Assembly: GCF_000003815.2 (NCBI RefSeq)
Contig: NC_049993.1
Span: 14,606,449 to 14,670,448 of the forward strand
DNA from: Branchiostoma floridae
Lineage: Eukaryota > Chordata > Leptocardii > Amphioxiformes > Branchiostomatidae
Reading direction: 5' to 3'
Length of the DNA: 64,000 nt
Part shown: positions 5,901 to 28,634 of the stretch, one piece after another
How positions within the stretch are numbered: position 1 is the first letter of the stretch
Layout of the letters: each line of letters opens with the position of its first letter
The notes under the pieces: model-generated
Told to the model about the DNA's origin: nothing
The model's input: the letters and a program-made list of their open reading frames with translations, nothing else
Database searches by the model: none
Translations under genes and position numbers: made by a program

Positions 5901-7221
5901 GGTTTTTCAATCTTTGTTGGACCTCCTCGAAACAAATGTCAATGTCTGTTATCTCTTCATTGTAGTGTCTTTCAGTTGGTATTGGGATGTGTTGTAGGTC
6001 TTCCTTAGTAAAGGTGCTTACAAAAAACTTGTTGAGTAACTCAGCTTTTTCTGTATCAGATTGTGCCACTGAGGATCCATCTTCCAAGTCTGGAATGCCT
6101 TGGCGCACTTTGGATTTCGAGTTTACATATTTCCAGAAGATTTTGGCATTGCCTTTGATGTTTCTCGCTTTCTCCTTTTCATATGTTTTGACCGCTTTTC
6201 TTGTGGCCCATCTGACCTGGTTTCTCGCCCTCGTGTATTTAATGTAGTCTTCCTTTGTCCTAGATTCACAGTATTTCTTCCAAAGTTTCTGCTTTTTGTT
6301 CACTTTTTTATTAACTTCCCTGTCTCTCCAAGATAGTTTCCTCTTCTTTTTTCTTGAGGAGACTTTGGGTACATTTCTGTTCGCACTTTCAGCTACTTTA
6401 NNNNNNNNNNNNNNNNNNNNNNNNNNNNNNNNNNNNNNNNNNNNNNNNNNNNNNNNNNNNNNNNNNNNNNNNNNNNNNNNNNNNNNNNNNNNNNNNNNNN
6501 CAGCAATCTTCAACATTCAATTTGCCTAGAATTTCCTGCCAGTCCAGTGACAGTTCCTCCCTCATTTTATCATAGTCCCCCTTGTTGTACTGGCATGTCT
6601 CATTTTTGTATTGTGTTCTGTTTTCATAACAGTTGATCTTAAAGTTTAATACCACATGGTCACTCTTGCCGATGGGGGGTCTCATGATTAGGTCACTTAT
6701 CATGTCACTATGTTTAATCTATTTCAGTTGGTCATTGTTTGCATTGTGATACATATTGTTGTGATTCGAGATATGGAGTCTTTGTCTGTCTATAGACATA
6801 TTAAATATATTATATAACTTGCTTAAAAAAGTTAGATATAGCACCACAACTTGAAAAGAAGATATTATACATACAAGCAGGGAGGACTTAAAAAGGTGTG
6901 ATCATCACCCTTGTAGATTCTCTGTATCAAAGAACTAGAAAACCCTGGGTTTGAGGCCACAGATAGCTCTAGGAACGTATGTTTTAGGAAAGCGATCGAC
7001 ATGGTGCCCCCCTCCCACAAGATGAGCTCTTGCACGCGACCAAATTTTAGGGGCTCGTATCAACGGTGAAAAAGCTTATGAGGCCCCAATATTCTCACAA
7101 AATGATCTTATTCTTACCTGGTCTTAGATTTCACTTTTGCTTTCTTCTTCTTCTTCTTCGTTTCTTCGCTTGGACCCGATAAATAGCGTTTCAGATATTC
7201 TTCTTTGCTCATCGACGCCAT
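2950..7221 (-). CDS. BUD13: BUD13 homolog, N-terminal three exons (partial)
   Basis: BUD13 is a spliceosomal protein of the RES (pre-mRNA retention and splicing) complex in the nucleus. Exons on the minus strand are 7118-7221 (ATG at 7221), 3893-3989 and 2950-3046. All have GT-AG borders, and phases 2, 0 and 1 join cleanly. Exon 1 encodes MASMSKEEYLKRYLSG followed by a Lys-rich stretch. Exon 2 carries the conserved IRIVDDDVDWRAI block. Exon 3 encodes VIDERPDEEVQLEAF followed by KWRLMG, which is the conserved 'DERPEE..QMEAFR' block of animal BUD13. The frame is open at the exon 3 donor (2949), so the RS-rich middle and C-terminal Bud13 domain must lie further along the minus strand. I could not find them between 1 and 2949. 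Intron 1 holds a LINE and the assembly gap; intron 2 holds a short foldback repeat about 15 bases from exon 2. The family assignment is secure; the rest of the gene is missing. Confidence 0.9.
3517..3880. repeat. interspersed repeat with internal foldback, copy 1
   Basis: The words 'tacgggtgttccggaccgg', 'cgtatcacacaggct' and 'atgacataaataaaatac' recur in the same order at about 46798-47090, so two copies of one family lie in the window. Copy 1 includes arms atacaacacggtgtattc (about 3785-3802) and gaatacaccgtgttgtat (about 3860-3877), which are exact reverse complements. It ends just before the donor of BUD13 exon 2. Confidence 0.6.
4088..4290 (+). repeat. tRNA-derived SINE fragment
   Basis: 'cacctgagtgaa' followed by 'gtaaagttcctttcccaagga' resembles, in the complementary orientation, the tail of the SINE at 42490-42803. 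No tRNA-like head is visible here, so it looks like a fragment in BUD13 intron 1. Confidence 0.4.
4301..6715 (-). mobile_element. Rex1/CR1-like non-LTR retrotransposon, 5'-truncated
   Basis: Reading on the minus strand, the end of an endonuclease domain (RPPIGKSDHVVLNF, about 6650-6700) leads through a linker into a reverse transcriptase ending at a stop at 4372. RT landmarks are NYRPVSLTSVVGKILE, AVYLDFRKAFDSVP, SGVPQGSVLGP and the catalytic box FADDTKL, followed by the usual thumb and C-terminal region. The 3' end is a pentanucleotide array (gagta on the plus strand, 4296-4318), a tail type seen in Rex1/CR1-like elements. The 5' part of the endonuclease is missing: an in-frame stop lies just beyond 6715. 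One hundred Ns (6401-6500) interrupt the ORF. The RT frame is otherwise open, so the copy looks fairly young. It lies in BUD13 intron 1 in the same orientation as BUD13. Confidence 0.88.
6401..6500. other. assembly gap (100 Ns)
   Basis: Exactly 100 consecutive Ns interrupt the LINE. The round number suggests a placeholder of unknown true length. The RT frame resumes on both sides only if the real gap length is compatible. Confidence 0.97.
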
Positions 7222-12375: not shown

Positions 12376-15300
12376 ATGACCGGATATCCGGTGGAACTTT
12401 TGACAAATACAGAAAATGGAACTATCAAAAACAAAGGCAGAGGGAGGTCCTTTTCAATGTCAGCAATCCAGTCAAAAAGCTTCGACGAAAACGACAACGC
12501 CATACCATATTCAACCAAGAAGCTACAAAGAAGCCAATCTCTTAAGGTTTTGGACGTTAGGTCAATGTCATGGCAAAGTCGCATTGCCCGTGCCCGGTCA
12601 GAGGACAACATCCACCGAAAGTCATCGGAAGGAATTTCGGAAGAAGTACAGAACAACAACACAGAAAATGTTGATGTGAAGAAGTCTACTGTTACTAAAA
12701 GTACGACCAAGTCGAATTCACAGACGCAAAACAAGTTTAAAACGGAAGACGTGTTCAAAAAGACACCGAAGATATTGGTGAATCCTACAAGCAACCAAGC
12801 TCAATTACGGAGACACATTAAAAAATCTGAAGTCCGTGGCTCCGTCGATAATCGCTGGGAAGACATAGAGGAGGAGACTTTCGAAATCGTAGAAACAGCA
12901 CGCAGAATGGATGGTGTACAAAGTGTGCCGTCGTTGTCTCACGGGGTAGGAACTGTTCAAAATGAAGAAACTAGGACCGCAAATCGTGCTTTTCCTGACG
13001 GGGCCGACAGCTACGATCGCGGGGATAAGGGTGGCGATTGTGCCGTTGTTGCTCAGGATTCCGAAACCCCAATTGTTCAAGAGTGTACGCTGGCATCAGC
13101 CAATGCTTCTGCATCAACATCTGCACCACAGGTTCCTCCACAGCCACAAACAGCCGGATCCGTCCCGTTTGCGTCTGCACCGCAGGTCCCTCCACAGTCA
13201 CAAACAGCTGGATCCGTCCCGTTTGTGTCTGCACCACAGGTTCCTCCACAGCCACAAACAGCCGGATACGTCCCGTTTGCATCTGCACCACAGGTCCCTC
13301 CACAGTCACAGACAACCGGATTCGTCCCGTTTGCGTCTGCACCACAGGTCCCTCCACAGCCGCAAACAGCCGGATACGTCCCGTTCATGCCTGCGATCGG
13401 TTTTCCCCCGGGCTCCTTTCCGCAAGGAGGGTTCCAGTTTCCGCCAGGTAACGTCTACATCTTCAACGGCTGCAGCAACATGCAGTTTGGGAACCAGAAC
13501 ACTATCAACTCCACGCAGCATCATGAACACCAGTCTCCTGGAGAAAAATTTGACAATCTGAACGAAGGTATTTCTCACGATTAGTTTTGCATCACCAGTA
13601 AACCGTCTTTAGCCGCAACACACCAGTTTTGTACAAAATGTGGTACGTTTTGCATAAGGCCGGACTGTAAGATTTGATCCAGTCAGACTTAGGAAATTTT
13701 AGACTACTAATTTTTCATCATCATCATCATCATCATCATTTTATTATTAATTTTTATTGACAACTAACAACTTAAACGAGTATCTTTTATATACATATTT
13801 CAGTACTGTTCAATTGGAACAATGGAATGATTCAAGATCTTCAATAATTATTCAAATTTAAAATATTTCACATCATATATTCAGGAATCATGCGGATGCT
13901 GATGAACCTGGCGGACGACCCACAAAAAGAACGGGAGATGGTCAACGACCTACAGGACGAAGACAAGCGTAAAGATTTTGTCAGTGGTCTTAAGGAGTTT
14001 GGCACGCAGGTAAAGAACCTTTTTATACACTGTTATGGTTAAAAGATGGAACATGTAATTGGAATTTAATTCTTTTTGTTTTGTTTACATTTTGTTAAAA
14101 TGCATGTATAACAGTTTTCCTTTTGTTCCTCCTACGTAGTTGAAGAGTGCTAGAGAAGGCTGCGTCCTCCTCGACTTTGAGATGTCCAAAGACCCAGAAG
14201 AACGTTTGCGCTTTCTGCGTTCCTGCCAAAGCGGGGAGTTTCAAAGGTTTATCCAGGTATGGTCATATATAGGATAACATACAAGAAAAGTGACTTACTG
14301 TGATCTTTTCTTCCAGACCTTCGTTATACATGTAAGTATACATCGATATAAAGACTCCGCGTTAATTAACGCTGACCAGCTATCAACCGAGTAAATAACC
14401 ACCCTCCTGGATTCTGTTATTGGAGAGAAACCTACTTACCAATCAAATTGCCCCTTGACCGCAGTTACCGACGTGATCGGCCGGTAGCTTTCCCTTGGTT
14501 TCGTCATACAAAACATTTTGAAGAAAGGCAGTGTGCATCATTCTATGCAGAGCGAAATACATACATACATGTGCACGCACTAACGTTTATCATCATTTCT
14601 TTGTTACAATTTCAGGACCATTTGCTGTCCCGGTACGTCGAGGACCCAAAGAAGATATCGATGGTCCTGTGCTTCAGCATCGCGTCCATCACAGACACGG
14701 AGTGTGGAGAAATGGCGTTCAACTTCAACTGTAAGTCGCTTTTTGTTTGTCTGTTTGTTTGTTTGTTTGTTGTTATCATGATTTTACCATGTTCGCGGCA
14801 TATACCTACGGACCTGCTTGCTTGCTTAAGTCGAGTCCATATATCCTACGGACCTAACACACCCAAACTACTGAGCAAGTCTGGATATGAGATACATGAT
14901 GTAGGAACACGACATGTCATTAATGTACGTATTTTGATTTATTTGTGATTTCATCTAGTGCTTCAAAGTGGCCCAGGTGTCACCATGTCCGGAGGTTTCT
15001 CTCCTATGCTAAGTCCTGGCAAAGCTGTCCCTGCCAGGAACTCATTATAATATTGAAATGACATTGAAATGAGCCAGGGTGCGACTGGAGAGGCTGTAAT
15101 TGGGTGATAATTAGTCTGGTTTCCCCTCCCACTTCTCCTCCTCTATTTTACATTTCTATATGCTCTAATTACACACCCTGCTAGGAGCCTATGAGTTCAC
15201 AAATAGTTTCAAACACCGACTTATCAATACATGTATGTTTTGATTTACCGGACATACCTGTTTACCGGAAAAAAAACTTATCTGTATATACCTGTAATAT

Positions 15301-18300
15301 ATTTTCCACTCCAAGCTTGAGATCACTTGTCTAAAAAAGCAACTGTACAGTAGTGCCGATCCAATAATAACCCATACAAAACTTAACTTTATTTAACTGG
15401 AAAGGCCAACTCCAAAATCATTAAACAGGCTCGTTCCTGTTTATAGCCCCCAAACAGGCTTTCCTAAAGATAATTTGGCAAAAAGAGGAATGATTGCAGG
15501 TCGCGGGGAGTTACATTCCCCCGCCTGAGGCCAAGACAAATATTATAATGATTGGTGTTGATTGCTTTGTTATTGTTTCACATTACCATACATTACACCG
15601 TCAACAACTGTCTAGTTAGAAGGCTTGCTCATTCAGTAAACCCTTATGTGGCCAAACTCCCGTAGTGAAAATTATTATCTCTACAGCTAGCCGGCGTAGT
15701 TAGTCCAAGGACGTTATATCAAACGTCCTTGATATAACGTCCTTGGTTAGTCTGGAAGAAACTCCTTTCTGTGGTGATCTGGATGTTTTGCCGCAGACTC
15801 TCTGAGTTCGGATCCTGAGAATTTCCATGTTGGCCCTGGAGCTGAGGAGCTAGGCAGTGTGGCCTCTGGGTCTGACTTCCAAGCTAATTTCACTGATTTC
15901 TGACGTAACTTTAGGTCAGTTTTTGTCTGTGACCAAGGACGTTGCTGTGACCCACTAGAATCGGATCAAAAACAGACAATCTGCGCTATTGTACACAAAT
16001 CTTGCCGAGCATGAATAACAAAGAACCACAGACTCTTTGCCTTGTGGCTTGTTGTGACAAGTTTCCTAGAAATGGTCTTGAAAAGCCTTTTTGGTTAAGC
16101 ACATGTTAGCTGATCAGCTGGGTAACATATACTGTCATATAGAAGGTTTGTTCAATATCCTTTGTCACAAGGCTAGGCGCATATGTGACATACTAGTAGT
16201 AGAACCACCTTTGTGTGTCCAAACATATATGGAAAAGCCGACTTTTTGACGTTCATGAAGTCGCATAATGCGTTGAAATTGAAACCGTTCTTGAAGACAG
16301 CCACACCTAAAGTACACGTAAAGAACCCATCATACTTCTAAAAAATACGGGTCCTTCCCGTACGCCCAAGTAAGTTGAAATAACCTCTTGGTTACGCCAT
16401 GGACAGTTTACCGGGTATGTAATACAAACAAAAACAAAAAACAAATGCCACATAACGCGTGTAAAACAAGCTAGACCGTACATGTGCCCGGAGATTGTAT
16501 TTTCTGTGCAACCAAGTAGGTTATCCTTGGTGCAACCTATCGTAACCTATATCCGATGCATCTTCTATTCAGACTTCGACTTACTTCAAAACTCTATGTA
16601 TCGGGTTGTAGTGGTAAAGATTCACTATTCTGAACGATTGTTTCTGTTAACCTCCTTGTTCTGTCAACCTCCTTGGTCTATTCTAGCAAATGTGTATTGC
16701 ATAAGAAATTATGCAATGTTTTGTGACGGGAGTCATTGCATGACCTGTGCTGAACTATATTATCAATCGACGGCTCTTAGCAAGTTTTCCATGCCCTGAA
16801 TATTCTTTCTGGTAGAATTTCCACCCTAAACGTTTTCTTCCCACAAAGTTTACTCTAGCAATGAATTAATTCTTTACAAAATCTCACTGACTGTGGCCCG
16901 ACTACATGTCAATCAGGACTTGAATGAATGCCATGGCCTCCCTGCATGCTATTGTCTGTCTCTTATGCATAATTAAAGATAATTGTAGGTAATCAGTTTC
17001 GTGAGGAGGTGTTAAAACAACAAATCCATTGAAAAATAAGCAGCTGTCAGATTGATTGATTAGCAAGATAACCAAAATCTACACAATTGGGAGTTTTAAA
17101 CTTAAAATCCCTAGCCAAGTTCGAAGCTACTTCTTACAAAGTTACGATTGGGTGTAAACAATGCTCAAGTAGTTAGTCTATTCCAATCCCTTGTTTGAAA
17201 ATTGATTTCACCTTAGAATACTGAGATATTGGCTGATAAAGTTATGGTCACCCCTCAAAAATCATAAGAATTTAGAATTATTTGGTATTTATAAAAGTCT
17301 AAGGTGTATTCTTATTTCTAGGGAAACGATTCCAATAGTACATGACTTAGGCAACATCGTGTAAAAATATCACTGCTCCAGGCCCACGACATGAAGTTGG
17401 CTGGGCCAATTATTATAAAATGACATAGTTTTTATATTTGTAAATTATGGAAATGCTATGTGTCTATTTCCAATATCTTATACATAGTTGGAAGAAGTAG
17501 TACCTAGGCAAAGTTCTTACCAAATTTCAAACTTTTGGAATATACGGAATTGCAGATAAAGCGATTTGTATCTACCCCACCCGTTCACTCTGTTTCTGGG
17601 CCTGCTGAGCCCTTGCCAGGACTTAGCAAACCAGAGTTGGAGGGTCTGCGGCAGTATGCAGCTTTGTCCGGTCTTAAGTGTAACGGTAGCGATGTGTCAA
17701 ACCAGTGCGGTCCCCAGTGGGTTATTGACGACAACTTGGACCCAGCCCAGCGCGATGCACTACGGCTGCATTTATCAAACGCACAGGTAATGCTCTTTCT
17801 GCATACTTAGTGTGTGTGCCTTGAGGCGGAAAGGTTTCACTGTAAATCCTTGTTCTATGGCTCTGTCGTGGCCTTTGCTGAAAATCGCATTGTGTAACAA
17901 AACATACATACAAAAAACTGTAGAAACAAAATCGGCCTCTGAATTTTTTCGTAAACTTGTACGAAACCCAAACTTACACCACTTACTCTCTGCTCAAAAA
18001 ATATTTACCACTCAAAAATCACAGCTTAAGCCAAGTCCAGAACGCGAAATTTCAAAAGTTGAAGTACTATTTATCTTGACCATTCTATTTTAGATCTCCT
18101 ATTTACTTACCAAATTTTATCAGAATCCATCTACGTCTTCAGGACTTATGCTGTTAACAAGCACACACAAAATTCTCCCGAAAAGAAAGCAACCTTCTTG
18201 GCGATTGTATGAGTTACTGTGCGACCTAAGCTAAAATGTTTTGCATGTATTCAGCTTCGGTTAAGCTCACTGTGATGAAAGATATTGTTGACATTGGAAA

Positions 18301-21300
18301 ATGCACCTCTAACGGGTTGTCTCTGCGTTTTCTTAACTTAGACCTCAACAGGAGAAGTGTCTACTATCGGAGGCCAGTCGACGATGTCCGCGATCGCAGA
18401 TGTTTTACAGCGACCCGTGCGACTGATCACTGCCCTCGAGAACAGCTTCGTGGACATCCTCATCCTCCCATCGCAGAACCTCAGCTCTTCCGGTCCCGAG
18501 GTCCCTGTAGTGATCGGAGTGTACGATAAAGACCACTACGTCCGGATCGACTACGTCACACCAGGTGAGAGAACGCACGGCTATCAAATAACAAGTAACA
18601 GACATTCTCTTATGTCAGGCTCGATGCTTGTTTATATGAAGCGAAGACCCCCGTGTACCTATCTTCGATCCGTCCTTCTCGCTAAATCAGCACTGTCGAG
18701 CCGTCAGCCAATCAGTCGGCTATACAATATACTCTCCTGTTGTTGAAGGGAAAACTTCTAGCCAATCATGTCGCTGCCTACCGTCAATATGCAACATGAT
18801 TGGTTGGTAGCTTTCCCTATAACTACTGGAGATTAAGTTTCGGACCCTGGCATAAAAGAATGCTAATATGTAGAAATTATTTTTGTTTAAATGAAATAAT
18901 TAAATCTATTAATTCTTTTTTTTTTTTTTTTTTTTTATTCAAACATTTAAACAGAAATACAGAGTGACAAAAGGGGGCGCACTCAAGTGCAAGACTTATT
19001 TTGACGCTACCCCTTACATAAAAAAGCATACATATTTTACAGAGAGAAGACAAGTACAAATGAAAAGCAAAGGAAAATCACTTCAGACAGAAAATAATAC
19101 ATTGTACTTAATATAACAAGAAAGGATAAGCGCAAGTCCAGTTTCCCACCCACTGATGAAAAAATTGGTCACATTACAAAAAATGCCAGGACAACTGTGT
19201 TTTAAAAACGCTTAGTTGTAGTGATGAAGTTTTGGGTTGTTAATAGAATATTGGAGTTGACAACAGATGAATGTAAAGGACTACCACGGAGTAAAATGGA
19301 AACTTTAGCGTTGTCCGATAGTGATGAGAGGTTAAGGGTGTGTCCTAAGAGCCTGGAGAGTTTGCCGAGGAGGGTTGAGCGTTGGGCATTGTACATAGGG
19401 CAGTAGAGTAAATAATGTAGTACTGTTTCGCGTTGGCACCCGCAGTTACATGCTGGGCTGTTTAGCAATCCTCGAGTAAAGAGACTGTGGTTTAAACTAC
19501 AGGTGCCAATACGAAGGCGTAATAGGTGAACACAGGAAAGGCGAGGGCCATGACTAAAATAGTTGAGCTTAACAGGTCGTATGGTTTTTAGGAGAACAGT
19601 TCGAAATTGACAGTAGTTTAAAGAGCGAGTTGACAAATCGAGGTTGTTCCAGTGGTGCGTCGAGTACGGAACAAAGGACCTGGCAAAACGATTAGTTGAA
19701 TAATTTGGAGGTTTTAAGTTCATCCTATTACGCAATTCATATGAACATGATGAGAGGATAGGTTTGGGTGCTAGTTGAGACAGGTAGTTTCGGGTTTGAC
19801 CATTTACAATTTTATAGAACAAACATAATCTATGAAGGTGTCTTCTGTCTGACAGTGTTTCCCAACCAAGTTCATTCCTAGTTGCCAAGTAAGAAGACCC
19901 CTTGATGGCGCCTGTTACAACAAGGGCACAGTGATATTGTATGCGTTCAATTTCCTCGGCTGTTGTACCGTGCCAGATGACGTCGCCGTACTCAAGACAG
20001 GGGCGGATGTATGATTTATATAAAGTTTCGAGGATATAACGAGGTAATTTGAATTTTAGGCCGCTAAAGAGGTCAATACTTTTGGATACCTTAGTTATAA
20101 TGTAATTAGTGTGGGAATTCCAGGACATGTTGGAGCTCAGTATAACTCCAATATGTTTATGGATATCGACTGACTTTATCACACTGTTGTTAAGAAAAAG
20201 GGGTGGGTGAACAAGGGGATCTCTCTTGGTTGAGAAGCACATTTCTTCTGATTTTTTTGGATTTAGCTCCATGAGCCACTGGGTGGCCCAAGCATGAATT
20301 CTGGACAGGTCAGCGTTTAAACAGGCAGCAGAATCAAAAGGGTTGTCTACAATTTGAAGAAGGGAGCTGTCGTCGGCAAATAGGAATGGGAGGGAAATAA
20401 GGTCATTTACAATGTCATTTATATAAACAAGAAAGAATAATGGGCCTAATATTGACCCCTGTGGAACACCAGCGTTAGTCATGTCCCAGGCAGAAGACTG
20501 GCCGTCAATGACTACACGCTGTGACCTATTTCTTAGATAACTGTCCATCCAATTAATGAGTGGTCCTTCTATACCATTTCTTTGTAGCTTAAAGATAAGT
20601 CCTGAATGCCACACCTTATCGAAGGCGCGCGAAAAGTCAAGAAATACTGCTCGAACGTCTTTACCTGACTCTAAAGATTTTAGTATGGTGTGTGTAAAGT
20701 ACACCAGCTGGCAGACTGTGGAGTCTCCTTTGATAAAACCTGACTGAAGACGATATAAAAGATCATTACAGATCAAGTGATTGTAAAGGTGTTTGTAAGC
20801 TATTTTTTCGAGTACTTTGGACAGGGTGGGGAGAAGTGATATGGGACGGTAGTTGGATTTGTCTTGTGGGTCACCTTTTTTAAAAATAGGTATAACGTTT
20901 GCGTATTTCCAAATTTCAGGAAATATGCCATGACAGAGTGAAAGATTAAAAACGAAAGATATTTTATCAGCAATGAAAGGCGTGATGATTTTGAGAAAAT
21001 GGTTATCGATGTTGTCATACCCGTGGGCCTTGCCGGTATCCAGGTTTTTAACAAACAATAAAACTTCTTCAGGGGAAGTTGTAATGTGTAGGAGCCGACT
21101 GGATGTGAGATATTGAAAAGCTGGGAGAGAGGCATGGGAATCGTCAATGGTTGATTGAGATGTAAAATATTTATTTAAAATTGTTGCCTTTTCGTGCTCG
21201 TCGAAAATATAGGAACTACCCTCTTTGAGAGGGGGGATGGAAGAAGTAACTTTAGGTCTATAAAAATACTTGACGACATGCCACCATTTTTTACTAGAAG

Positions 21301-24300
21301 TAGATGGGTCATTAAGCGAATGTATAAGGCGTTCGTAGTAGTTGGATTTGTTTTGTGAAATGAGATTGGTGAGCCTGTTGCGCACCTTTCGGTATGCAGC
21401 CCAATTTGCATTTGTGTTAAGACGCCGAGCCTGTTTGTGAAATTTATCCCGTGAACGCATGAGTTTGCGAACTTCAGAAGTAATCCAGGGTTTGTCTTTG
21501 GGTCTGATTAATATTGTTTTGCTGGGGACGCACTGATGTTTAGCCTCTAGGATAAGCTCAGATAATTTTGTCGCGGCTGAGTCGACTGAATCACAGAGAA
21601 AGATATCATTCCACTTGGAGGAAGAGCAAAAAGTCGCGAGATTGTTTTGGTTTATTTGTGAGAAGTCCCAGACGGTCCGATGATAAGGTTTTGGTATGTG
21701 GACAGACAGGGACATAGAACAAATAGTCGGACAGTGGTGACAACCTGACAGGGGGGCTTGAACTGATATGGAATCTACGTAGTTTGTGGCATCGGTAAAA
21801 ATTAGGTCAAGAAGAGAAGGATTTTGAGACAAATCGCAGGTTGGTTGATTAACAATTTGGGCGAGATTCAAAAACTGTGTCGACTGATACAGTTTGTTGC
21901 CAACAGACGAGGTAGAGTCCCGGTGCCACCACTGATCATGTTTTGCATTAAAAATCGCCCAGAATGACGATTGCGTCAGGATTGGACATCTTGGCCACCT
22001 GGACTGAGTCAGTGAGGGAATTTATGAATTCATCAACAGTAGACGCATCTTGATTGGGTGGCCTATAATAGACGGATAACAAGATTTTGAAAGATTTGAG
22101 TTTCAGTTCGACCCAGATAGCTTCAAAAAGTTGAGACTCGAGATCAGTGCGCCTTATGAAGGCGATGTTTGTTGATATGTATAAGAGCACCCCACCACCG
22201 TGTCTGTTTCGATCACGTCTTGTGGGTGGTTGAAAGCCCTGAATTGCAAGGTTGTCGGAAGAAATCTCACTACTTAACCAGGTCTCGGTGATAGCAATAA
22301 TGTCAAGTTTGAAATTTTGGGATAAAAAGGATAACTCATCCAGCTTAGTTCCGGCGGATATACTGTTAACGTTAGCGTGTAGTATGTTGAGGTACTTGGA
22401 TGTTCCGGGATACTTAGCGGGCCCAGGGTTGGGATGCACATCGTAACATAAACTGATCAATAGCAAAATCAAGAGGAAATAAAATATAAACGAAATTATG
22501 CAAGAACAACATTTAAGCTTAAACAGTCTGCGCAGAGTCCCAATGATGCCGTATTTTGTGATGTAAAACAAACCTATAGCTGCCCTATACAGATCAAGGT
22601 CAACAGGCATTAGCCCTCGGGTCCTCCCGGCAAACGGATCTCAGGACGTAAATCATGGGGGGAAAGGGTGGACGTGCGCTTCAAATAATTCATGAACAAC
22701 ATAACAATAAATAAAACATTGAACATAATATCAAACATAAGCAAGCTGTCACGAAATGGCATTTCATTCATTCCCGACAGACAAACTTGAAATGATAGAT
22801 CGTCTGTTTCTGAAATAGGCGATCCCGTGTGTACATACTTAAACAGAAAAGAAAAGACAGAATATATACAAGGACACAATACAAATAGAGATATACACTT
22901 ATAATCACAAGTACGCATAGGCGTAAGGGTCAATGTTGGACCGCGTGTCCGCAAAAAAAAAAAAAAAAAAAAAAAAAAAGAAGCATAGATCCTAATCAAG
23001 TTATAATAGATCATGAAGGCGTAGCCCTCAGACAAACAGATCGTCTTGAGTCAGGTTGTTTAGGGAACAAACAAACTATTAGCGAGAACTTGGCCACAGT
23101 TACAGACAGTAAGTCATAGAGTTATGTCTCGCCTGCTGAGGAAGTTGAGGTGATGGAGTCTAGGTCCTCAAGACAGCTAATCTTCTTCTTCACACCGTCG
23201 ACGAGGCAGAAGATCCGGCCGTCGAAGGACCAGGCCGTCCCCAGCTTCGCCCGTGTCTCTCGGAGTAACTGGGCATTCTCGCGTGTAAGGTGCTCGGTGA
23301 TGTACATGCCCGATCCCTTCAGCTTAGACTTGGCCGTGAAGATTTTATTACGGGTGTTGTAGGACACAAACTTGATAACAATCGGTGGTTTCCTTCCGCT
23401 GTTGGATTCCTTGCGTCCTGGGAGAGGATGAGCACGGTCAATCTCACTCTCAGAAAGGGTGACGCCCAGCTTGTTCTTGGCTAAGTCGAGGACGACGCTG
23501 ACTGAGTCGGAATCAGATGTAGTAGCTCCGTGCAGTAGAAGACAGTTGCGCCGCGAGTATTGCTCCAGCTCATTGAGACGCCTGGAATGTTGATGGATTG
23601 AAACAGCTGCCTCCTCTACTTTGTTCTCCAGGTGTGCGACCGTCGACTTAATTACCGCTTGCTCCTCGGCGAATTTTCCAAACTGTTGCTTTAAACCTTG
23701 AATCTCTGATTTCAGCGGATCCAAGAGGGTTGCTTCAATTGCGTCAAGCAGTAGTTTGTGCTCGGAGGAAAGTTTACCTCGGAGTTCGGCAGACCGCACC
23801 TCGTTGCTTGAAGACGAGCGAGTAGACCGCTGGTGATGCGACATGACGAACTGAAAAATGGCGTAGCTCGATTCGGAGGACAGAAATAGACGCGAAAACA
23901 GTATTCACCTCCCAGCACAGTTGAAAACCGTAAACAGCAAGTGAACAGCCTCACGAGGAGGTTGCTGAATTGAATAAATCCGGCTATAGAACGCAGAAAA
24001 ACTTGAAGTTAAATGAGGCAGACAGCGGAGCAACAGAATTCAGCTACCAGTCACCATGGTGACCTTTGACCATTACCAGTCACCATGGTGACCTTTGAAA
24101 GTTGAAGTTAAATGAGGCAGACAGCGGAGCAACAGAATTCAGCTACCAGTCACCATGGTGACCTTTGACCAGCTACCAGTCACCATGGTGACCTTTGACC
24201 ATTAATTCTTTCACATGATAGTAATAAAAATCTACATATAGATGCTAGGTATGTATATGAACATACATGCCATTTCATATAGTATTAACATTTTCATTGG

Positions 24301-27300
24301 AATCACCTTATCCCAGTACCATTTTTCATTCATATTCACGGTGTGTCATACACTGAGCTGAACAGACGTAGAGGTTTCTCACAATGACATCATCTCCATT
24401 ACAGAGGTACCTCTACAAGTGACAACATCTAGCGGTGCGGACCTCCACTCTGACGGCCACACAGACCGTGCACCGCAAGAAGAAGAAGGAACTACATGGG
24501 AAAAGACAGACAATGGACACGCTCTCCGATTCAATACGACCATCAACGATCTTACAAGACAGACGCGCGTCCCAGACAAGACAGACTCGCGATGGGCCTC
24601 CCTAACCACTACGACCTTCTCCGACTGCACGGTGAGTCTCAAGAACACAGAAGACCCGCTGTGTCTTGAAGTGCGCACTCAAAACATGAAGCAAGATCTA
24701 ACATCTCTTGAGAGAGTCCTTACCCTATTCCCTCAACGCTATAAAGTGGCAAAGGTATGCCTTAGTGGGAACAACCTACGGCAAATACCGGACGGAATGG
24801 CCCTCATGCCGATGCTAAAATGCCTGGCAGCACAGAAGAACAAGTTGACGAAAATCCCGGCCAGTATTCCAGACCTTACCAACCTCACCGTGGTAGACTT
24901 CAACCGCAACCATTTCACAAAGTTTCCCGAAGGTCTCCAGTTCCTTCCGCTGTTGAAGAAGGTCTACCTCTGCTTTAACAAGATCAAATCCATCCCAGTC
25001 GGTGTTCTGTCTAAGATGCAGAACCTCAAGGTGCTGGCCGTTGATAAGAATCGTCTTAAAGGTATGCCCAAAGACATCGTCGAATGCAACAACCTTGCGG
25101 AGTTGCACATCAAAGGAAACCCTCTTAGCAGCTTGCCCAGAATGGTGTTCAGTATGCCCAGTCTAAACCTACTAGGGGTTGACAGAAATGTGTGGGAAGG
25201 ATTTCTAAAACACAACGACGATACGAGGTACCGTCCATCCTTTAACGTATGCTTCGGCAGATGCCAACACATGAACTATGACAGGGAAGAGGACCTAGCC
25301 GAAGCAACAGACAACGCCATTCAAAAGGCAGTGGACAAGGAAAGGAGCCTAGTACAAGAGAAAAATCTACCGGAAAAGCGATCCCTAAAAGAGGAGGAAG
25401 AGAAACCTAAACAGGGATGCACGGAACAGGATCAAGAAGAGACGCCTATCTCCCCATCAGCTGACATCAGCCTTACAACACACGTTTCCAGCATGGACGA
25501 CTACAACAGCACTTACCGAAGGTCCATCGAAGACCCGGCGGAGTTCTGGCGAGAGATCTCCGAAGAGTTCCACTGGGAGACCGGTCCGAAAGGAAAATTC
25601 GTCGAGCACAACTTCGACCCCAACGTTGGTGAGGTTTTCGTAAGATGGATGTCGGGAGCGACAACTAACATCACCTACAATCTCCTAGAGAAGAACATTC
25701 GAGAGAAGGGTCTTCGGTCTACCATAGCGTTACAGTGGCAAGGGGACGACGACAAAGAAACAAGACAAGTGACGTACGGCCAGTTGAAGAGCCTAGTTTG
25801 TCGCGCAGCTAACATGCTGAAGGCCAAGGGAATCAAACGAGGCCATAGAGTGATGATCTACATGCCGCAGACGATAGAACAGGTTGTAGCCATGCTAGCG
25901 TGTGCACGTATCGGCGCCGTCCACTGCGTTGTCTATGGAGGGGCTACGGCAGAGTACCTTGCCGACCGGGTGAAGGATTCGAAGTGTACCGCCATCATCA
26001 CCGCTGACGTTGCCCGTAAAGACGGCGGTAGCCAGCCCGTGAAGACTGAGGTAGACAGAGCGTTGAAAATCTGCGATAAACAACACTTCGTGAAGTCTTG
26101 TATAGTCGTGAGGCGTTCTGGAGACGGGGAGCGGGACGGTGGGACGAAGTCGGCCGGGACGCAAGAGAGGAACGTCCCGTGGTGTGACGGAAGGGACTAC
26201 TGGTGGGATGAAGAGATGGAGGGGGTGGAGGACGAGTGTGAACCGGAGTGGATGGATGCTGAGGATCCCCTGCTCATCCTCTACACAAGTGGTTCTACAG
26301 GTGAGTAAAATTATGAATTCAATCTAACAGTGTGTGGAATGGGGAAACAGTTGCAATTTTCTCTTATTCCAGACATGTCGCGGTCAGCTCTTTTTTTTTT
26401 CTTTGCGTTTAGCGCTGGCCAGTCGTCAGCCAATCAACTATTACCTTTGTTTGTTTCCAGCCAATCACGTTGTTGTTTGACTGCAGGCTTTGATATGATT
26501 GGCTGGAAACTTTTTACCCCGAACAAAAGTAACGTGAGAATCTGATTGGCTAACGGCTAGCTAGCTCTGACACAGCAGAAAGGTTGTTATCAGCCAATCA
26601 CGTTGCGTCTTGACCGAAGGAGGTGGCGTGATTGGTTGATGAGCTTTCCTCCAACAACAATAGGGAGAGTATTTGATTGACTGACCGCTTGACAACACTG
26701 ACACCGCGGGAAGGACAAATCACAGGTCGCTACGTATACTCCAAGATCATTGCTTGGTAAATAAAATCAAGCAGGGGCCTGGCAACGAAATTGAGTGTTT
26801 GTAAACGTTGTGTCTTTTCTTATTACATAGGCTCACCAAAAGGAGTCATCCACACCGTCGGCGGCTACATGATGTACACGGCAACCACCTTCAAGTACGT
26901 ATTCGACTGTGGAAACGTGAGAGACAAAGTCCACTTCTGTACCGCAGACCTGGGCTGGGTGACCGGGCAGAGTTACGTCATCTACGGCCCGCTCCTGAAC
27001 GGCGTCACCACGGTCCTACTCGAGGGCGATCCCCTCAAAGACAACAGGATCGTAACCATGGTGACGAAGTACCACGTCACCAGCCTCTACACCACGCCCA
27101 CCGCCATACGTCATATGAAGGCGACTAGCGATCCTGGTAAGAACTACAAGCTGGATACACTCCGTGTCGTCGGTACCGTTGGTGAACCGATCGCGAAATC
27201 AACATGGCGGTGGTACCGGAGTACGATCGGAAGCGACCACTGCTCCGTAGTCGATACGTACTGGCAAACGGAAACCGGCGGGCACGTCATGACACCCCTC

Positions 27301-28634
27301 CCGGGAGCAACCCCGATGAAGCCCGGGTCAGCTACGCTTCCGTTCTTCGGGGTTGAACCGGCCGTTCTCTCCGACGACGGGACGGAGATGGTTGGACCTT
27401 GCGAGGGACACCTGGTCTTCAAGTCACCATGGCCGGGGATGATGCGAGGAATCAACGGGAAGCCGGAAAAGTTCGCCTCCTATTTTGAACAGTTTCCCGG
27501 CTACTACTACACAGGGGATCGGTGTCGCCGTGACGGAGACGGGTACTACCGGATCCTCGGGCGGCGGGAGGATAGAGTCAGCATCCCAAGCGCCATGGGG
27601 CAGGTCTTCAACCAACTGGACGTGGAGGCAACACTTCTCCAGGTTAGTATCATTTCATATTTTAAGATATCCGTTATAACACGTTTGTTCAGGGTTTCAA
27701 GTGCGCATACGCGGTATGGTGTATTGTGGGTAATGTCAACGTTGATGGCCATTTCAGTGTGACTTTAAACTCATTTTACCTACAATATATCACGCCGTTC
27801 ATACGGAATTCTAACCCTTATCTAGCTTATTGATATCAACAAGAAGGCTTTCGGTGCAGAGTGCTGAATCAGAAAATGTCTTTCAATGTGGGGTGATGTG
27901 TTCACACCAAAAAGATGTAAGGACAACCGACAACTAAAGTGTCTAAAATAATGCAATTTTTGTCTACTAGAAATACATCTGAACTAAAAATTACCATTTT
28001 TACGTATCTCAATAAAATCGTTTGGTTTAAATTGTACATGTAATAAACTTCTACATTAATTGTTAACGCTATCACGGTTTGCTATCTGTTGATTGTTACG
28101 AAAAACGATGTTAAATTCCTCGATTCCAATATGGCGAATCAAAGATGGCGGATCTCTGTATGTATGACGTCATTTTGTGACATCACTTTGTTCTATTTGT
28201 CCACACAGCATCCAGACGTGGAAGAAGTTGCAGTAGTCACAACAGACCCTGCAGACGACAGTGGAGGCGGCTCCAGCGGTACCAGCAGCGCCGGATACGA
28301 CAACTGGTACATTTTCGTCAAACTCCGCCAGACGGCGTGCGTGAGCTTGACCGAAACGATCTTCAGCACCCTTCGCGACATGCTGGCTACAACGTTACAC
28401 ATCTTTACCCCACCCAGCCATATGCACTGCGCGAGCGAGTTACCCAGAACTTGGTCGGACAAGGTGCTCAGGCGACTGTTGCGTAAGGTTGTGCTCAATG
28501 ACCATGACCTTGGTGACTTTCACGTCGTGGCCAATCTGAAATCACTCACCACGCTTTTCAGGCAGTGCCGTGATATGCAGAGTTCATGTGAGTCTATCGA
28601 TATGTTTACAAAGCCAAGATCCATGCCATCATAA
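12376..28634 (+). CDS. RHIM / TRADD-N-like / OTU-like / LRR / acetyl-CoA-synthetase fusion protein (gene model)
   Basis: Exons: 12376-13567, 13885-14009, 14140-14256, 14616-14730, (unresolved region), about 17618-17786, 18342-18564, 24366 (or 24405)-26300, 26831-27642 and 28209-28634 (stop TAA). Excluding the unresolved join, borders are GT-AG and phases agree: 1, 0, 0, 1 ... 0, 1, 1, 0. Domains in order are a disordered N-terminus, five 18-aa repeats, a RHIM-like motif, a TRADD-N-like fold, an A20-like OTU C-terminal half, about six LRRs, ACAS_N, and an AMP-binding domain with its C-terminal subdomain. The estimate is about 1,700 residues, probably cytosolic: no signal peptide or membrane segment is seen. 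The 5' and 3' halves are linked because the 18342 exon ends at a strong donor (cag|gtgaga) with no stop, while the 24366 exon has no in-frame ATG before the LRRs and its acceptor needs exactly the phase supplied. Start chosen: first ATG after an in-frame stop (12331), with A at -3. Two adjacent genes remain possible. Confidence 0.6.
13120..13389 (+). repeat. five in-frame 54-bp tandem repeats (SAPQVPPQPQTAGSVPFA)
   Basis: Five consecutive 54-base units start at residue 249 of the model, each encoding SAPQVPPQ(P/S)QTxG(S/Y/F)VPF(A/V/M). The period is exactly 18 codons, so copy-number change preserves frame. It is Pro/Gln-rich and probably unstructured. It forms a flexible spacer directly before the RHIM-like motif. 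Confidence 0.95.
13450..13509 (+). other. RHIM-like amyloid motif (model residues 359-378)
   Basis: The sequence NVYIFNGCSNMQFGNQNTIN contains the core tetrad M-Q-F-G, which fits the RHIM pattern (I/V/L/M)-Q-(hydrophobic)-G. Flanking N-x-C-S and N-x-N-x-I positions resemble vertebrate RIPK3-type RHIMs, with one extra residue before the Cys. RHIMs assemble hetero-amyloids in necroptosis and inflammatory signalling. The placement after a disordered linker and before a folded adaptor domain is typical. The match is by eye; the amyloid function is inferred. Confidence 0.7.
13726..13742 (+). repeat. (ATC)n microsatellite
   Basis: A short run of cat/atc trinucleotides in the first intron of the RHIM gene. 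Confidence 0.8.
13885..14730 (+). other. TRADD-N-like domain (three exons)
   Basis: Exons 13885-14009, 14140-14256 and 14616-14730 encode a helix-rich lead-in (RMLMNLADDP ... FVSGLKEFGTQ), then LKSAREGCVLLDFEMSKD, RFLRSCQSGEFQRFIQDHLL and KKISMVLCFSIASI. The order 'REG-C-V-hydrophobic strand / FLR-S-C-SGEFQ helix / strand' follows the second half of the TRADD N-terminal alpha-beta fold, which in TRADD binds TRAF2. Related TRADD-like N-terminal domains are common in invertebrate immune proteins. This is recognised by pattern only, and an unrelated alpha-beta domain is possible. Confidence 0.55.
15705..15746. repeat. perfect 18-bp inverted repeat, 6-base loop
   Basis: CCAAGGACGTTATATCAA at 15705-15722, then the loop ACGTCC, then the exact reverse complement at 15729-15746. 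It is a strong hairpin in either strand's transcript. 'gaccaaggacgttg' recurs at about 15940. It may be a small MITE or the foldback end of one. Confidence 0.85.
15799..15903 (+). CDS. possible alternative terminal exon of the RHIM gene
   Basis: After the acceptor-like 'ttttgccgcag', the sequence reads in the phase left by the 14730 exon as Y-SLSSDPENFHVGPGAEEL and so on, to FQANFTDF and a TGA stop. If used, it would give a short isoform ending after the TRADD-N-like domain, without OTU, LRR or synthetase. The phase match alone has a one-in-three chance, and I recognise no homology. Confidence 0.25.
   Translation, partial: SLSSDPENFHVGPGAEELGSVASGSDFQANFTDF
17618..18564 (+). other. OTU-like C-terminal half (A20-type), two exons
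   Basis: Exons 17618-17786 and 18342-18564 join in phase 0. The second encodes STIGGQSTMSAIADVLQRPV, then VDILILPSQ, then PEVPVVIGVYDKDHYVRIDY. This follows the OTU deubiquitinase order: a GG-plus-helix segment, 'L-x-R-P-I' strand, 'YLP' segment, then 'P-hydrophobic-G-Y...HH/HY-hydrophobic' with the catalytic His (here in DKDHYVRI). It looks closest to the A20 (TNFAIP3) arrangement. The N-terminal half with the catalytic Asp/Cys (DGNCL-type) was not found, so the domain may be catalytically dead, or that exon is unrecognised. Confidence 0.5.
19202..21871 (-). CDS. LINE ORF2, reverse transcriptase part
   Basis: An open frame of 889 codons from the first Met after the frameshift. RT motifs in order: KYANVIPIFKKGD, NYRPISLLPTLSKVLEKI, VRAVFLDFSRAFDKVWH, AGVPQGSILGPLFF, and FADDSSLL (catalytic). 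Then the thumb region and a Cys/His C-terminal knuckle (CNCGCQRETVLHYLLYCP), typical of CR1/L2-type elements. It ends TTKRF-stop. The same C-terminus is present in the fragment at 37945-38510. Confidence 0.92.
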   Translation of the reverse strand: MNLAQIVNQPTCDLSQNPSLLDLIFTDATNYVDSISVQAPLSGCHHCPTICSMSLSVHIPKPYHRTVWDFSQINQNNLATFCSSSKWNDIFLCDSVDSAATKLSELILEAKHQCVPSKTILIRPKDKPWITSEVRKLMRSRDKFHKQARRLNTNANWAAYRKVRNRLTNLISQNKSNYYERLIHSLNDPSTSSKKWWHVVKYFYRPKVTSSIPPLKEGSSYIFDEHEKATILNKYFTSQSTIDDSHASLPAFQYLTSSRLLHITTSPEEVLLFVKNLDTGKAHGYDNIDNHFLKIITPFIADKISFVFNLSLCHGIFPEIWKYANVIPIFKKGDPQDKSNYRPISLLPTLSKVLEKIAYKHLYNHLICNDLLYRLQSGFIKGDSTVCQLVYFTHTILKSLESGKDVRAVFLDFSRAFDKVWHSGLIFKLQRNGIEGPLINWMDSYLRNRSQRVVIDGQSSAWDMTNAGVPQGSILGPLFFLVYINDIVNDLISLPFLFADDSSLLQIVDNPFDSAACLNADLSRIHAWATQWLMELNPKKSEEMCFSTKRDPLVHPPLFLNNSVIKSVDIHKHIGVILSSNMSWNSHTNYIITKVSKSIDLFSGLKFKLPRYILETLYKSYIRPCLEYGDVIWHGTTAEEIERIQYHCALVVTGAIKGSSYLATRNELGWETLSDRRHLHRLCLFYKIVNGQTRNYLSQLAPKPILSSCSYELRNRMNLKPPNYSTNRFARSFVPYSTHHWNNLDLSTRSLNYCQFRTVLLKTIRPVKLNYFSHGPRLSCVHLLRLRIGTCSLNHSLFTRGLLNSPACNCGCQRETVLHYLLYCPMYNAQRSTLLGKLSRLLGHTLNLSSLSDNAKVSILLRGSPLHSSVVNSNILLTTQNFITTTKRF
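21948..22610 (-). pseudogene. LINE ORF2, N-terminal part: hydrophobic leader, 2A-like motif, APE endonuclease
   Basis: From M at 22610 the protein has a hydrophobic stretch (residues about 38-55), then YDVHPNPGP, then an apurinic-type endonuclease (ILHANVNSI, ITETWLS, RHGGGVLLYI, YRPPN, ending VILGDF). A stop directly after GDF results from one extra base in a run of five (21950-21954). The downstream frame resumes as NAKHDQWWH... into the RT segment. In an intact element this would be one continuous ORF2 nicking target DNA. Confidence 0.85.
22419..22442 (-). other. 2A-like motif in LINE ORF2 (DVHPNPGP)
   Basis: Residues 57-64 of the ORF2 leader read DVHPNPGP, directly after a Leu-rich stretch. 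Canonical ribosome-skipping 2A peptides read D(V/I)ExNPGP; here His replaces Glu. 2A-like sequences near the N-terminus of non-LTR retrotransposon ORFs are known. Activity of this variant is uncertain. Confidence 0.6.
23122..23844 (-). CDS. LINE ORF1 protein (coiled coil plus nucleic-acid-binding region)
   Basis: A 240-residue ORF starting MSHHQRSTRSSSSNE. Residues about 25-100 look like a coiled coil (GLKQQFGKFAEEQAV, HLENKVEEAA). The following region (RRNCLLLHGATTSDSD ... SEIDRAHPLPG ... PPIVIKFVSYNTRNKI) resembles the RRM-like/trans-domain of LINE ORF1 proteins, which bind element RNA and form trimers. The ORF is complete. It is expressed with ORF2 from the element's own transcript, if at all. 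Confidence 0.8.
   Translation of the reverse strand: MSHHQRSTRSSSSNEVRSAELRGKLSSEHKLLLDAIEATLLDPLKSEIQGLKQQFGKFAEEQAVIKSTVAHLENKVEEAAVSIHQHSRRLNELEQYSRRNCLLLHGATTSDSDSVSVVLDLAKNKLGVTLSESEIDRAHPLPGRKESNSGRKPPIVIKFVSYNTRNKIFTAKSKLKGSGMYITEHLTRENAQLLRETRAKLGTAWSFDGRIFCLVDGVKKKISCLEDLDSITSTSSAGET
24002..24200. repeat. tandem repeat with palindromic GTCACCATGGTGAC units (LINE 5' region)
   Basis: A unit starting 'gttaaatgaggcagacagcg' and ending 'accatggtgacctttgacc' occurs twice (about 24008 and 24107). Each carries one or two copies of the 14-bp palindrome GTCACCATGGTGAC, four in all. The repeat ends at the target-site duplication, so it is the element's 5' end, possibly monomer-type promoter repeats. 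Confidence 0.75.
24366..26300 (+). other. LRR array plus N-terminal two thirds of the ACS module (exon)
   Basis: About 24730-25190 encodes six or seven leucine-rich repeats of the 'plant/SHOC2-like' type (KVCLSGNNLRQIPDGM, VDFNRNHFTKFPEGL, VLAVDKNRLKGMPKDI, ELHIKGNPLSSLP). A charged linker follows (about 25280-25470). Then comes an ACAS_N segment (STYRRSIEDPAEFWREISEE) and the AMP-binding domain (VMIYMPQTIEQVVAMLACAR, GAVHCVVYGG), ending at LLILYTSGSTG. The exon has no ATG before the LRRs in its frame, so it needs upstream coding sequence. It ends tctacag|gtgagt in phase 1. Confidence 0.9.
26380..26710. repeat. CCAAT-rich repeat copies in the ACS intron
   Basis: 'cagccaatcacgttg' and its inverse 'tgattggctgg/gtgattggttg' occur several times in facing pairs. 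Related sequence occurs at 14390-14480 and 18690-18820. It looks like a short interspersed repeat family with inverted CCAAT words rather than a functional promoter array. Confidence 0.5.
26831..28634 (+). other. ACS module, central and C-terminal exons
   Basis: Exon 26831-27642 continues the P-loop (SGSTGSPKGVIHTVGGY) and contains SYVIYGPLLNG, GTVGEPI and the A5 motif YWQTETGG with the Trp that in acetyl-CoA synthetases restricts the pocket to acetate. It also has LPGATPMKPGSAT and the A7 motif YYYTGD. The hinge/A8 segment reads GRREDRVSIPSAMGQVFNQL, where family members have GR(x)DD...SGHR...; it is longer by about three residues and lacks the SGH. Exon 28209-28634 holds the C-terminal subdomain with A10-like ELPRTWSDKVLRRLLRKV, keeping the catalytic Lys (28461-28463), with SGK changed to SDK, and a Gly/Ser-rich insert. 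Closest to ACSS1/2-type ligases (acetate + ATP + CoA). The half-reaction may be kept while CoA ligation is altered. Confidence 0.88.

What the first reader, a model, noticed from the sequence alone, without database searches (positions are those of the whole stretch)
12376..28634. Candidate new immune-type architecture: RHIM + TRADD-N-like + OTU-like + LRR + acetyl-CoA synthetase in one gene
Seen: exons with matching phases encode, in order, a RHIM-like motif, a TRADD-N-like fold, an A20-like OTU C-terminal half, LRRs and a whole ACS module. The exon ending at 18564 needs a downstream partner, and the exon starting at 24366 needs an upstream one with exactly that phase. Known: RHIM, TRADD and A20 act in TNF/necroptosis signalling; ACS makes acetyl-adenylate and acetyl-CoA. 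Inference: a self-assembling sensor or scaffold coupled to metabolic enzyme output, or a receptor using an adenylating domain as effector. I know of no described protein with this order.
Basis: partly seen in the sequence, partly recalled or inferred. Interest (0 to 1): 0.95.

Follow-up and report, generated by a model that had tools for sequence, protein, structure and literature searches.

The report
Immune adaptor fused to acetate enzyme
A lancelet-type genome carries a gene that appears to join cell-death adaptor parts to leucine-rich repeats and a complete acetyl-CoA synthetase, and its front half belongs to a small family in which the same adaptor parts precede different tails.

Summary
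The observation mostly holds; one part is wrong and one open join now has a likely answer. Exons A (RHIM-like), B-D (TRADD-N-like) and G-I (LRR plus a whole acetyl-CoA synthetase, ACS, fused inside one exon) are present. Paralogs in the same genome help. RHIM before TRADD-N recurs at five other loci, two with RHIMs above Pfam's cut-off, and the A|B junction matches a paralog (NEG|IM). The exon after TRADD-N in paralogs begins with a strand (GNEDVVVVEIP) that resembles the start of exon G at 24366 (HNDIISITEVP; first or second of 327 compatible acceptors). The likely gene is A-B-C-D-G-H-I: 1573 residues, RHIM - TRADD-N - LRR - ACS. The OTU-like exons E and F lie inside the D-G intron beside a young antisense LINE; D to E makes a stop and no OTU family matches. 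The ACS keeps its adenylating core (115 of 132 conserved positions) but its C-terminal domain is eroded (17 of 34). TRADD-N proteins with varied tails are known; RHIM-TRADD-N and an ACS tail were not seen in the listings and passages consulted. No transcript, second species or assay was available. New variant of a known kind.

The parts
12376..13567 (+). Exon A: low-complexity N-terminal region with five copies of an 18-residue SAPQVPPQPQTAG-type repeat, then one RHIM-like core; ends in phase 1
   Evidence: the A|B junction NEG|IM is the same as in the C11 paralog
13456..13509 (+). RHIM-like 18-mer YIFNGCSNMQFGNQNTIN
   Evidence: best solved-structure match is RIPK3, E 0.54, not significant by itself
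13885..14009 (+). Exon B: start of the TRADD-N-like domain
14140..14256 (+). Exon C: TRADD-N-like core with the Gly-Cys form of the uS/C motif (EGCVLLDF)
   Evidence: motif described in PMC8195603 (passage); its codon score is low (0.21)
14616..14730 (+). Exon D: TRADD-N-like, ends in phase 1 (left-over T)
24366..26300 (+). Exon G: likely last TRADD-N strand (HNDIISITEVP), linker, LRRs, then ACAS_N and the first part of the AMP-binding domain
26831..27642 (+). Exon H: second part of the ACS AMP-binding domain
28209..28634 (+). Exon I: ACS C-terminal domain (eroded, Lys of PRTWSDK kept) and stop
17620..17786 (+). Candidate exon E of the OTU-like reading; not supported as part of this gene
18342..18564 (+). 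Candidate exon F (OTU-like by eye); coding-like but an orphan inside the D-G intron
18916..24000 (-). Non-LTR retrotransposon (LINE) inserted antisense in the D-G intron; poly(T) at 18916-18936, endonuclease and reverse transcriptase reading frames; 5' end approximate

Best explanation
Supported by sequence: the locus most likely holds one gene, exons A-B-C-D-G-H-I, for a 1573-residue protein with the order RHIM - TRADD-N - LRR - ACS. It belongs to a family of RHIM-TRADD-N loci whose downstream parts differ. Inferred mechanism: the RHIM makes the protein self-assemble with other RHIM proteins; TRADD-N sits at the junction and holds the tail inactive until assembly; the LRRs bind the trigger or a partner; the ACS-derived tail is the effector or metabolic switch. 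Because the adenylating core is conserved while the CoA-step domain is eroded, I think it most likely that the tail binds acetate and ATP, and perhaps makes acetyl-AMP or spends ATP, rather than being a housekeeping maker of acetyl-CoA. The tail probably arose as an intron-poor copy of the animal's own acetyl-CoA synthetase gene. I give about 0.75 to the single-gene architecture, 0.5 to an immune or cell-death role, and 0.3 to the adenylating-effector step; the confidence below is for architecture plus family.
For: Joined exons give 1573 residues without a stop. RHIM-TRADD-N order in the window and in 5 of the 9 places matched by the C135 TRADD-N, C135 included. Pfam RHIM above cut-off in C135 (25.5 bits, 2 stretches) and C11 (23.4 bits, 2 stretches), below it in C148 (17.4). 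Identical junction NEG|IM in the window and C11; the donor after TRADD-N reads as phase 1 in the window, C135, C148 and C11. The next exon of C135 and C148 starts GNEDVVVVEIP / DKEAVKVIEIP; with these two, HNDIISITEVP at exon G is the only one of 72,674 stop-free 11-mers in the window to reach its score and rank 1 of 327 open phase-1 acceptors. Exon G has no in-frame ATG before 24686, so if its first 100 codons are coding it needs an upstream exon. TRADD-N profile match E 5.8e-5. ACS: 115 of 132 core positions kept, 17 of 34 in the C-terminal domain; pairs with the own ACSS-type gene on C2, support 0.909; the C2 and C1 exons run through the site of the window's G|H intron.
Against: No RNA evidence and no second species. 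With four paralog strands instead of two, the strand match falls: 18 of 72,674 window 11-mers reach it and exon G ranks 2 of 327; in 42 other loci of this genome 51 of 172,697 11-mers reach it. The coding score of the start of G (0.56) is not independent, because G was in the training set. The window RHIM has a deviant core (MQFG), no Pfam hit, and one copy where 3 of 5 paralogs show two by the regex. TRADD-N in the window stays below Pfam's cut-off, and a profile of the family finds no TRADD structure in PDB. The D-G intron is 9.6 kb. The ACS tree has 250 columns with gaps for the own genes; the own C1 gene fell among bacterial tips (0.873), the node joining these groups has 0.34, and C4 was left out. 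Identity to prokaryotic ACS is as high as to the C2 gene, so a bacterial source is not excluded.
Confidence: 0.65

Rival explanations
1. Two neighbouring genes: a RHIM-TRADD-N gene that ends within 14.7-17 kb, and a separate LRR-ACS gene with an unseen first exon.
For: A 9.6-kb gap with a LINE lies between D and G; AATAAA or ATTAAA words occur in the gap; a possible last exon at 15797-15903 that joins D in frame and ends in a stop has a moderate acceptor and the best codon score of the 14731-17620 gap.
Against: Exon G starts with a strand like that of the exon following TRADD-N in paralogs, in the required phase; no start codon at the front of G; part of the gap is a recent insertion (other copies at 97-99% identity).
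Confidence: 0.2
2. The first reader's full chain with an OTU-like piece (exons E, F) between TRADD-N and the LRRs, perhaps as an alternative isoform.
For: F has a good donor and coding-like codon use and ends in the phase that G needs.
Against: D to E at 17620 makes a stop; no OTU match by Pfam, PDB or within the genome; no catalytic Cys half was seen in the gap by eye; E and F would split the TRADD-N domain before its likely last strand.
Confidence: 0.07
3. The ACS tail is a dead passenger: a copy kept in frame by chance, with RHIM-TRADD-N-LRR the working part.
For: C-terminal domain erosion (17 of 34 conserved positions kept), long branch.
Against: About 660 codons of ACS without a stop, and 115 of 132 core positions kept, speak for selection.
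Confidence: 0.15
4. The ACS tail came from a bacterium by horizontal transfer rather than from the animal's own gene.
For: Identity to 80 prokaryotic ACS is as high as to the own C2 gene on the same 187 columns (median 57.0, maximum 62.9, against 62.0 for C2); few introns.
Against: The tree pairs it with C2 (0.909), and C2 itself is closer to the prokaryotes (median 66.7), as expected if the window copy merely evolved faster; but that tree is poorly resolved.
Confidence: 0.15

Closest known systems
Animal TRADD-N multidomain proteins, DEDD2 and NCOA6 clades (Kaur et al. 2021, PMC8195603; passages seen)
   Same: TRADD-N with the uS/C turn motif at the junction between a recurrent front part and a variable tail; Branchiostoma expansions; LRR, TRIM and TTC28-like TPR partners and retrotransposon association are described there
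   Different: The terms RHIM, OTU, acetyl-CoA and ACS do not occur in its main text; its supplements could not be read; here the front part is RHIM and the tail is LRR-ACS
RHIM proteins RIPK1, RIPK3, TRIF, ZBP1 (and lancelet RIPK1, PMC12119088; passages seen)
   Same: RHIM-type core; the best solved-structure match is RIPK3, E 0.54
   Different: No kinase, TIR or Z-alpha domain among the Pfam matches; RHIM is joined to TRADD-N
Acetyl-CoA synthetase (ACSS/Acs family, e.g. PDB 2p20)
   Same: Full-length ACS with most core positions kept
   Different: LRR and adaptor domains in front; eroded C-terminal domain; three exons, with a G|H intron that the own C2 and C1 genes lack
TRADD (vertebrate; features recalled)
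   Same: TRADD-N-like domain; the C148 paralog has Death-domain exons behind it
   Different: RHIM in front; LRR-ACS instead of a Death domain in the window gene

Membership tests
TRADD-N superfamily | Pfam TRADD-like_N at curated cut-off | tested here: not met
   17.5 bits against 23.7, E 0.0037
TRADD-N superfamily | Profile similarity to clear members | tested here: met
   hhalign of the five-member family with four clear members: E 5.8e-5, probability 66, over 48 columns
TRADD-N superfamily | tiny residue plus Ser (or Cys) motif at the beta2-beta3 turn | tested here: met
   Gly-Cys invariant in 5 of 5 aligned members; definition from a passage; that it sits at the turn was not checked on a structure
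TRADD-N superfamily | RRM-like fold | not tested
   the spliced chain was not handed to structure prediction
RHIM | (I/V)Q(I/V/L)G core (recalled) and Pfam RHIM match | tested here: inconclusive
   window core MQFG, no Pfam hit; paralogs C135 and C11 above cut-off, C148 below
RHIM | amyloid assembly | not testable with these tools
   needs protein
Acetyl-CoA synthetase | ACAS_N and AMP-binding domains, full length | tested here: met
   2p20 E 2e-151
Acetyl-CoA synthetase | intact C-terminal domain for the CoA step | tested here: not met
   17 of 34 conserved positions kept; AMP-binding_C 17.8 bits against 24.5; the Lys of PRTWSDK is kept
LRR proteins | several LRRs above Pfam cut-off | tested here: met
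   LRR_8 4 stretches, 52.5 bits against 27
OTU / A20 | OTU profile match | tested here: not met
NLR | NACHT/NB-ARC domain | tested here: not met
   no such match in the Pfam scan of the exons

The most novel reading that the evidence does not exclude
Lancelets have a family of RHIM-TRADD-N adaptors, each with a different tail, that links amyloid (necrosome-type) assembly to TRADD-type switching in one chain. One member has taken an acetyl-CoA synthetase copy as an assembly-controlled metabolic effector that makes acetyl-AMP or drains ATP, acetate or CoA at the signalling complex.
Probability: 0.3. Interest if true: 0.9.

Novelty: new variant of a known kind. Interest (0 to 1): 0.72.

Why it matters
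If the chain is one protein, it ties a prion-like death-signalling motif to a core metabolic enzyme and gives a direct test of whether metabolic adenylating domains serve as immune effectors. The RHIM-TRADD-N family also bears on how the TNF-receptor adaptor TRADD and the RIP kinases, separate proteins in vertebrates, came to work in one pathway: in this chordate relative the two modules stand side by side, with Death-domain exons behind them at one locus.

Tried and rejected
OTU reading of exons E and F: tried by Pfam, PDB, own-genome protein search and own-genome OTU family search; nothing. D to E splice at 17620: rejected for the TGA. A possible small exon 15797-15903 after D: open and in phase, best codon score of the 14731-17620 gap, but no usable donor before its stop; kept only as a rival last exon. 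TRADD structure by sequence profile: no TRADD hit with the five-member alignment; the best of 2 hits was E 0.54 to an unrelated protein. RHIM in the TRADD-like_N places of the genome at large: 30 of the 69 listed places were scanned, 2 of 30 had a regex hit, one on the other strand and one downstream of the domain. A RHIM family search of the own genome was asked for three times and never answered. LINE target-site duplication: only an 8-base shared word was found, not convincing.

Full report
What was checked. The window lies in a 513-Mb genome of 431 contigs, at C15:14606449-14670448.

Exons. Exon A (12376-13567) begins with an ATG and is open. Its end carries a RHIM-like core (YIFNGCSNMQFGNQNTIN) after five copies of an 18-residue proline-rich repeat. 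Exons B, C and D join in phase. G (24366 or 24405 to 26300), H (26831-27642) and I (28209-28634) join in phase and end in a stop. LRRs and the ACS N-terminus lie in the same exon without an intron, so the LRR-ACS fusion does not depend on any splice guess. PDB searching aligns almost the whole ACS part with bacterial acetyl-CoA synthetase (2p20, E 2e-151).

The RHIM-TRADD-N family. Searching the own genome with the window's end of A plus B-D found two more places, on C135 and C148. Each has a one-exon TRADD-N-like domain preceded by a reading frame with two RHIM cores. A search with the C135 TRADD-N found 9 places: C135 itself, C148, C11, C235 and five on C19, one of them weak. In the 1.5-kb flanks a RHIM regex hit lies upstream on the same strand in C135, C148, C11 (two each), C235 and one C19 place (one each): 5 of 9; the other four show none in that flank. 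Pfam puts RHIM above its cut-off in C135 and C11, and below it in C148 (C235 and C19 were not scanned). A search with the C11 RHIM exon finds C11, C135 and C235, not the window. What lies downstream differs: two Death-domain exons behind C148 (one above cut-off), a RING/B-box/NHL reading frame behind C135, and TPRs with a DUF294 nucleotidyltransferase behind C11. That these belong to the same genes is likely but was not shown.

Which exon follows D. The A|B junction reads NEG|IM both in the window and in C11 (AACGAAG|gt...ag|GAATCATG and AATGAAG|gt...ag|GAATTATG). After TRADD-N the donor reads as phase 1 in the window, C135, C148 and C11. In C135 and C148 the next exon, by my reading of the acceptors (ACAG and AAAG), starts with GNEDVVVVEIP and DKEAVKVIEIP; similar strings lie just downstream in C11 (GDENVVVIKIR) and C235 (GTRDVVVVEVN), the only hits in the 7 kb scanned of each. 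The window exon G, if it starts at 24366, reads YVEVS-HNDIISITEVP. Scored against the first two strings, this is the only one of 72,674 stop-free 11-mers in the window to reach 21, and the best of 327 open phase-1 acceptors downstream of D. Against all four strings it is less special: second of 327 acceptors, 18 of 72,674 11-mers at or above it, and 51 of 172,697 in 42 other own-genome loci, 30 of which are TRADD-like_N loci themselves. Independently, G has no ATG in frame before 24686. The chain A-B-C-D-G-H-I translates to 1573 residues without a stop. I therefore take D-G as the likely splice.

Exons E and F. The left-over T of D plus the first two bases of E (17620) gives TGA. Other E acceptors are weak, in the wrong phase or run into a stop. 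In a codon score trained on A, G, H and I, F scores 0.58, B 0.59, D 0.49, C only 0.21 and E 0.18; so E is hardly worse than C, and the score alone does not exclude it. Neither Pfam, PDB nor the own genome offers a relative of E+F, and none of the 75 listed OTU places is here. F looks OTU-like by eye in its last half; no catalytic half was seen. They are left as an unexplained orphan.

The intron. Between F and G lies a LINE on the minus strand (RVT_1 1.6e-28, endonuclease) with its poly(A) tail at 18916-18936. A 401-base piece has 40 other match rows in the genome (a lower bound), the best at 97-99% identity, so the insertion is young and the D-G gap was shorter before.

TRADD-N membership. 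Pfam TRADD-like_N: E 0.0037 for the window, 0.0053, 0.15 and 0.002 for C135, C148 and C11, all below cut-off. A five-member alignment with invariant Gly-Cys compared with four clear TRADD-like_N domains (two of C13, one each of C2 and C1) gives E 5.8e-5, probability 66. Kaur et al. describe the small-residue-plus-Ser (sometimes Cys) motif and propose a switch role for the domain at the junction of constant and variable parts (PMC8195603; passages read).

The ACS tail. The role of that domain in the CoA step is recalled from the known enzyme. On 250 columns a tree pairs the window with the own C2 gene (0.909) on a long branch, but it is weak: the own C1 gene falls among bacterial tips (0.873), the next node has 0.34, and C4 (one piece) was left out. 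Own ACS-like matches are four pieces on C2, three on C1 and one on C4, as expected of multi-exon genes, and the C2 and C1 exons run through the site where the window has its G|H intron. This fits an intron-poor copy with later introns; a bacterial source is less likely, not excluded.

Mechanism. Architecture and family rest on sequence; assembly by RHIM, switching by TRADD-N, sensing by LRR and output by the ACS core are inference from the families. The selective erosion of the CoA-step domain is the one piece of sequence evidence that the tail is not a plain metabolic enzyme.

Literature. Searches for RHIM with TRADD-N, TRADD, amphioxus or invertebrates, ACS with LRR or TRADD, ACS with RHIM and ACSS2 with LRR or lancelet listed, among the rows shown, no title or abstract start describing this order; beyond listings I saw passages of four papers (PMC8195603, PMC12119088, PMC9573974, PMC2575513) and read none whole. 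Lancelet RIPK1 with a RHIM is known (PMC12119088), while another paper states that among RIP kinases RHIM was identified only in vertebrates (PMC9573974). Supplements of Kaur et al. were not readable, so this locus may be listed there.

Noticed in passing
L014 and L020-L021 (C148:162177-168006, +): Paralog with two RHIM cores, TRADD-N and two Death-domain exons downstream (one above Pfam's cut-off), like TRADD with RHIMs added.
   Followed up: partly
L013, L018 (C135:206369-201204, -): Paralog with two RHIM cores, TRADD-N, then a RING/B-box/NHL reading frame without a Met before the RING.
   Followed up: partly
L055, L062 (C11:2600369-2592740, -): Paralog with two RHIM cores, TRADD-N, then TPRs and a DUF294 nucleotidyltransferase.
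   Followed up: partly
L056, L063 (C235:240045-234703, -): Paralog with RHIM and TRADD-N; a reading frame with a very weak PTB-type match (E 0.22) lies downstream.
   Followed up: no
G000:C17:18.3-18.9 Mb: Large cluster of TRADD-like_N domains, the bulk of the 69 places listed in the genome, with no RHIM upstream in the loci scanned.
   Followed up: partly
G000:C231: Dense cluster of LRR reading frames, the nearest relatives of the window LRRs at 37% identity at best.
   Followed up: no
window 18342-18564: Orphan coding-like exon F with good splice sites and no relative found in the genome.
   Followed up: partly
window 37880-38233 +: Fragment that by eye resembles the tail of the same kind of LINE.
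   Followed up: no
window 62834-64000 -: Fucosyltransferase (glycosyltransferase family 10) reading frame reaching the window end.
   Followed up: no
window 24040-24200: Short tandem repeats of a GTCACCATGGTGACCTTTGACC-type unit just upstream of exon G.
   Followed up: no
window 6401-6500: A 100-base run of N, probably an assembly gap.
   Followed up: no
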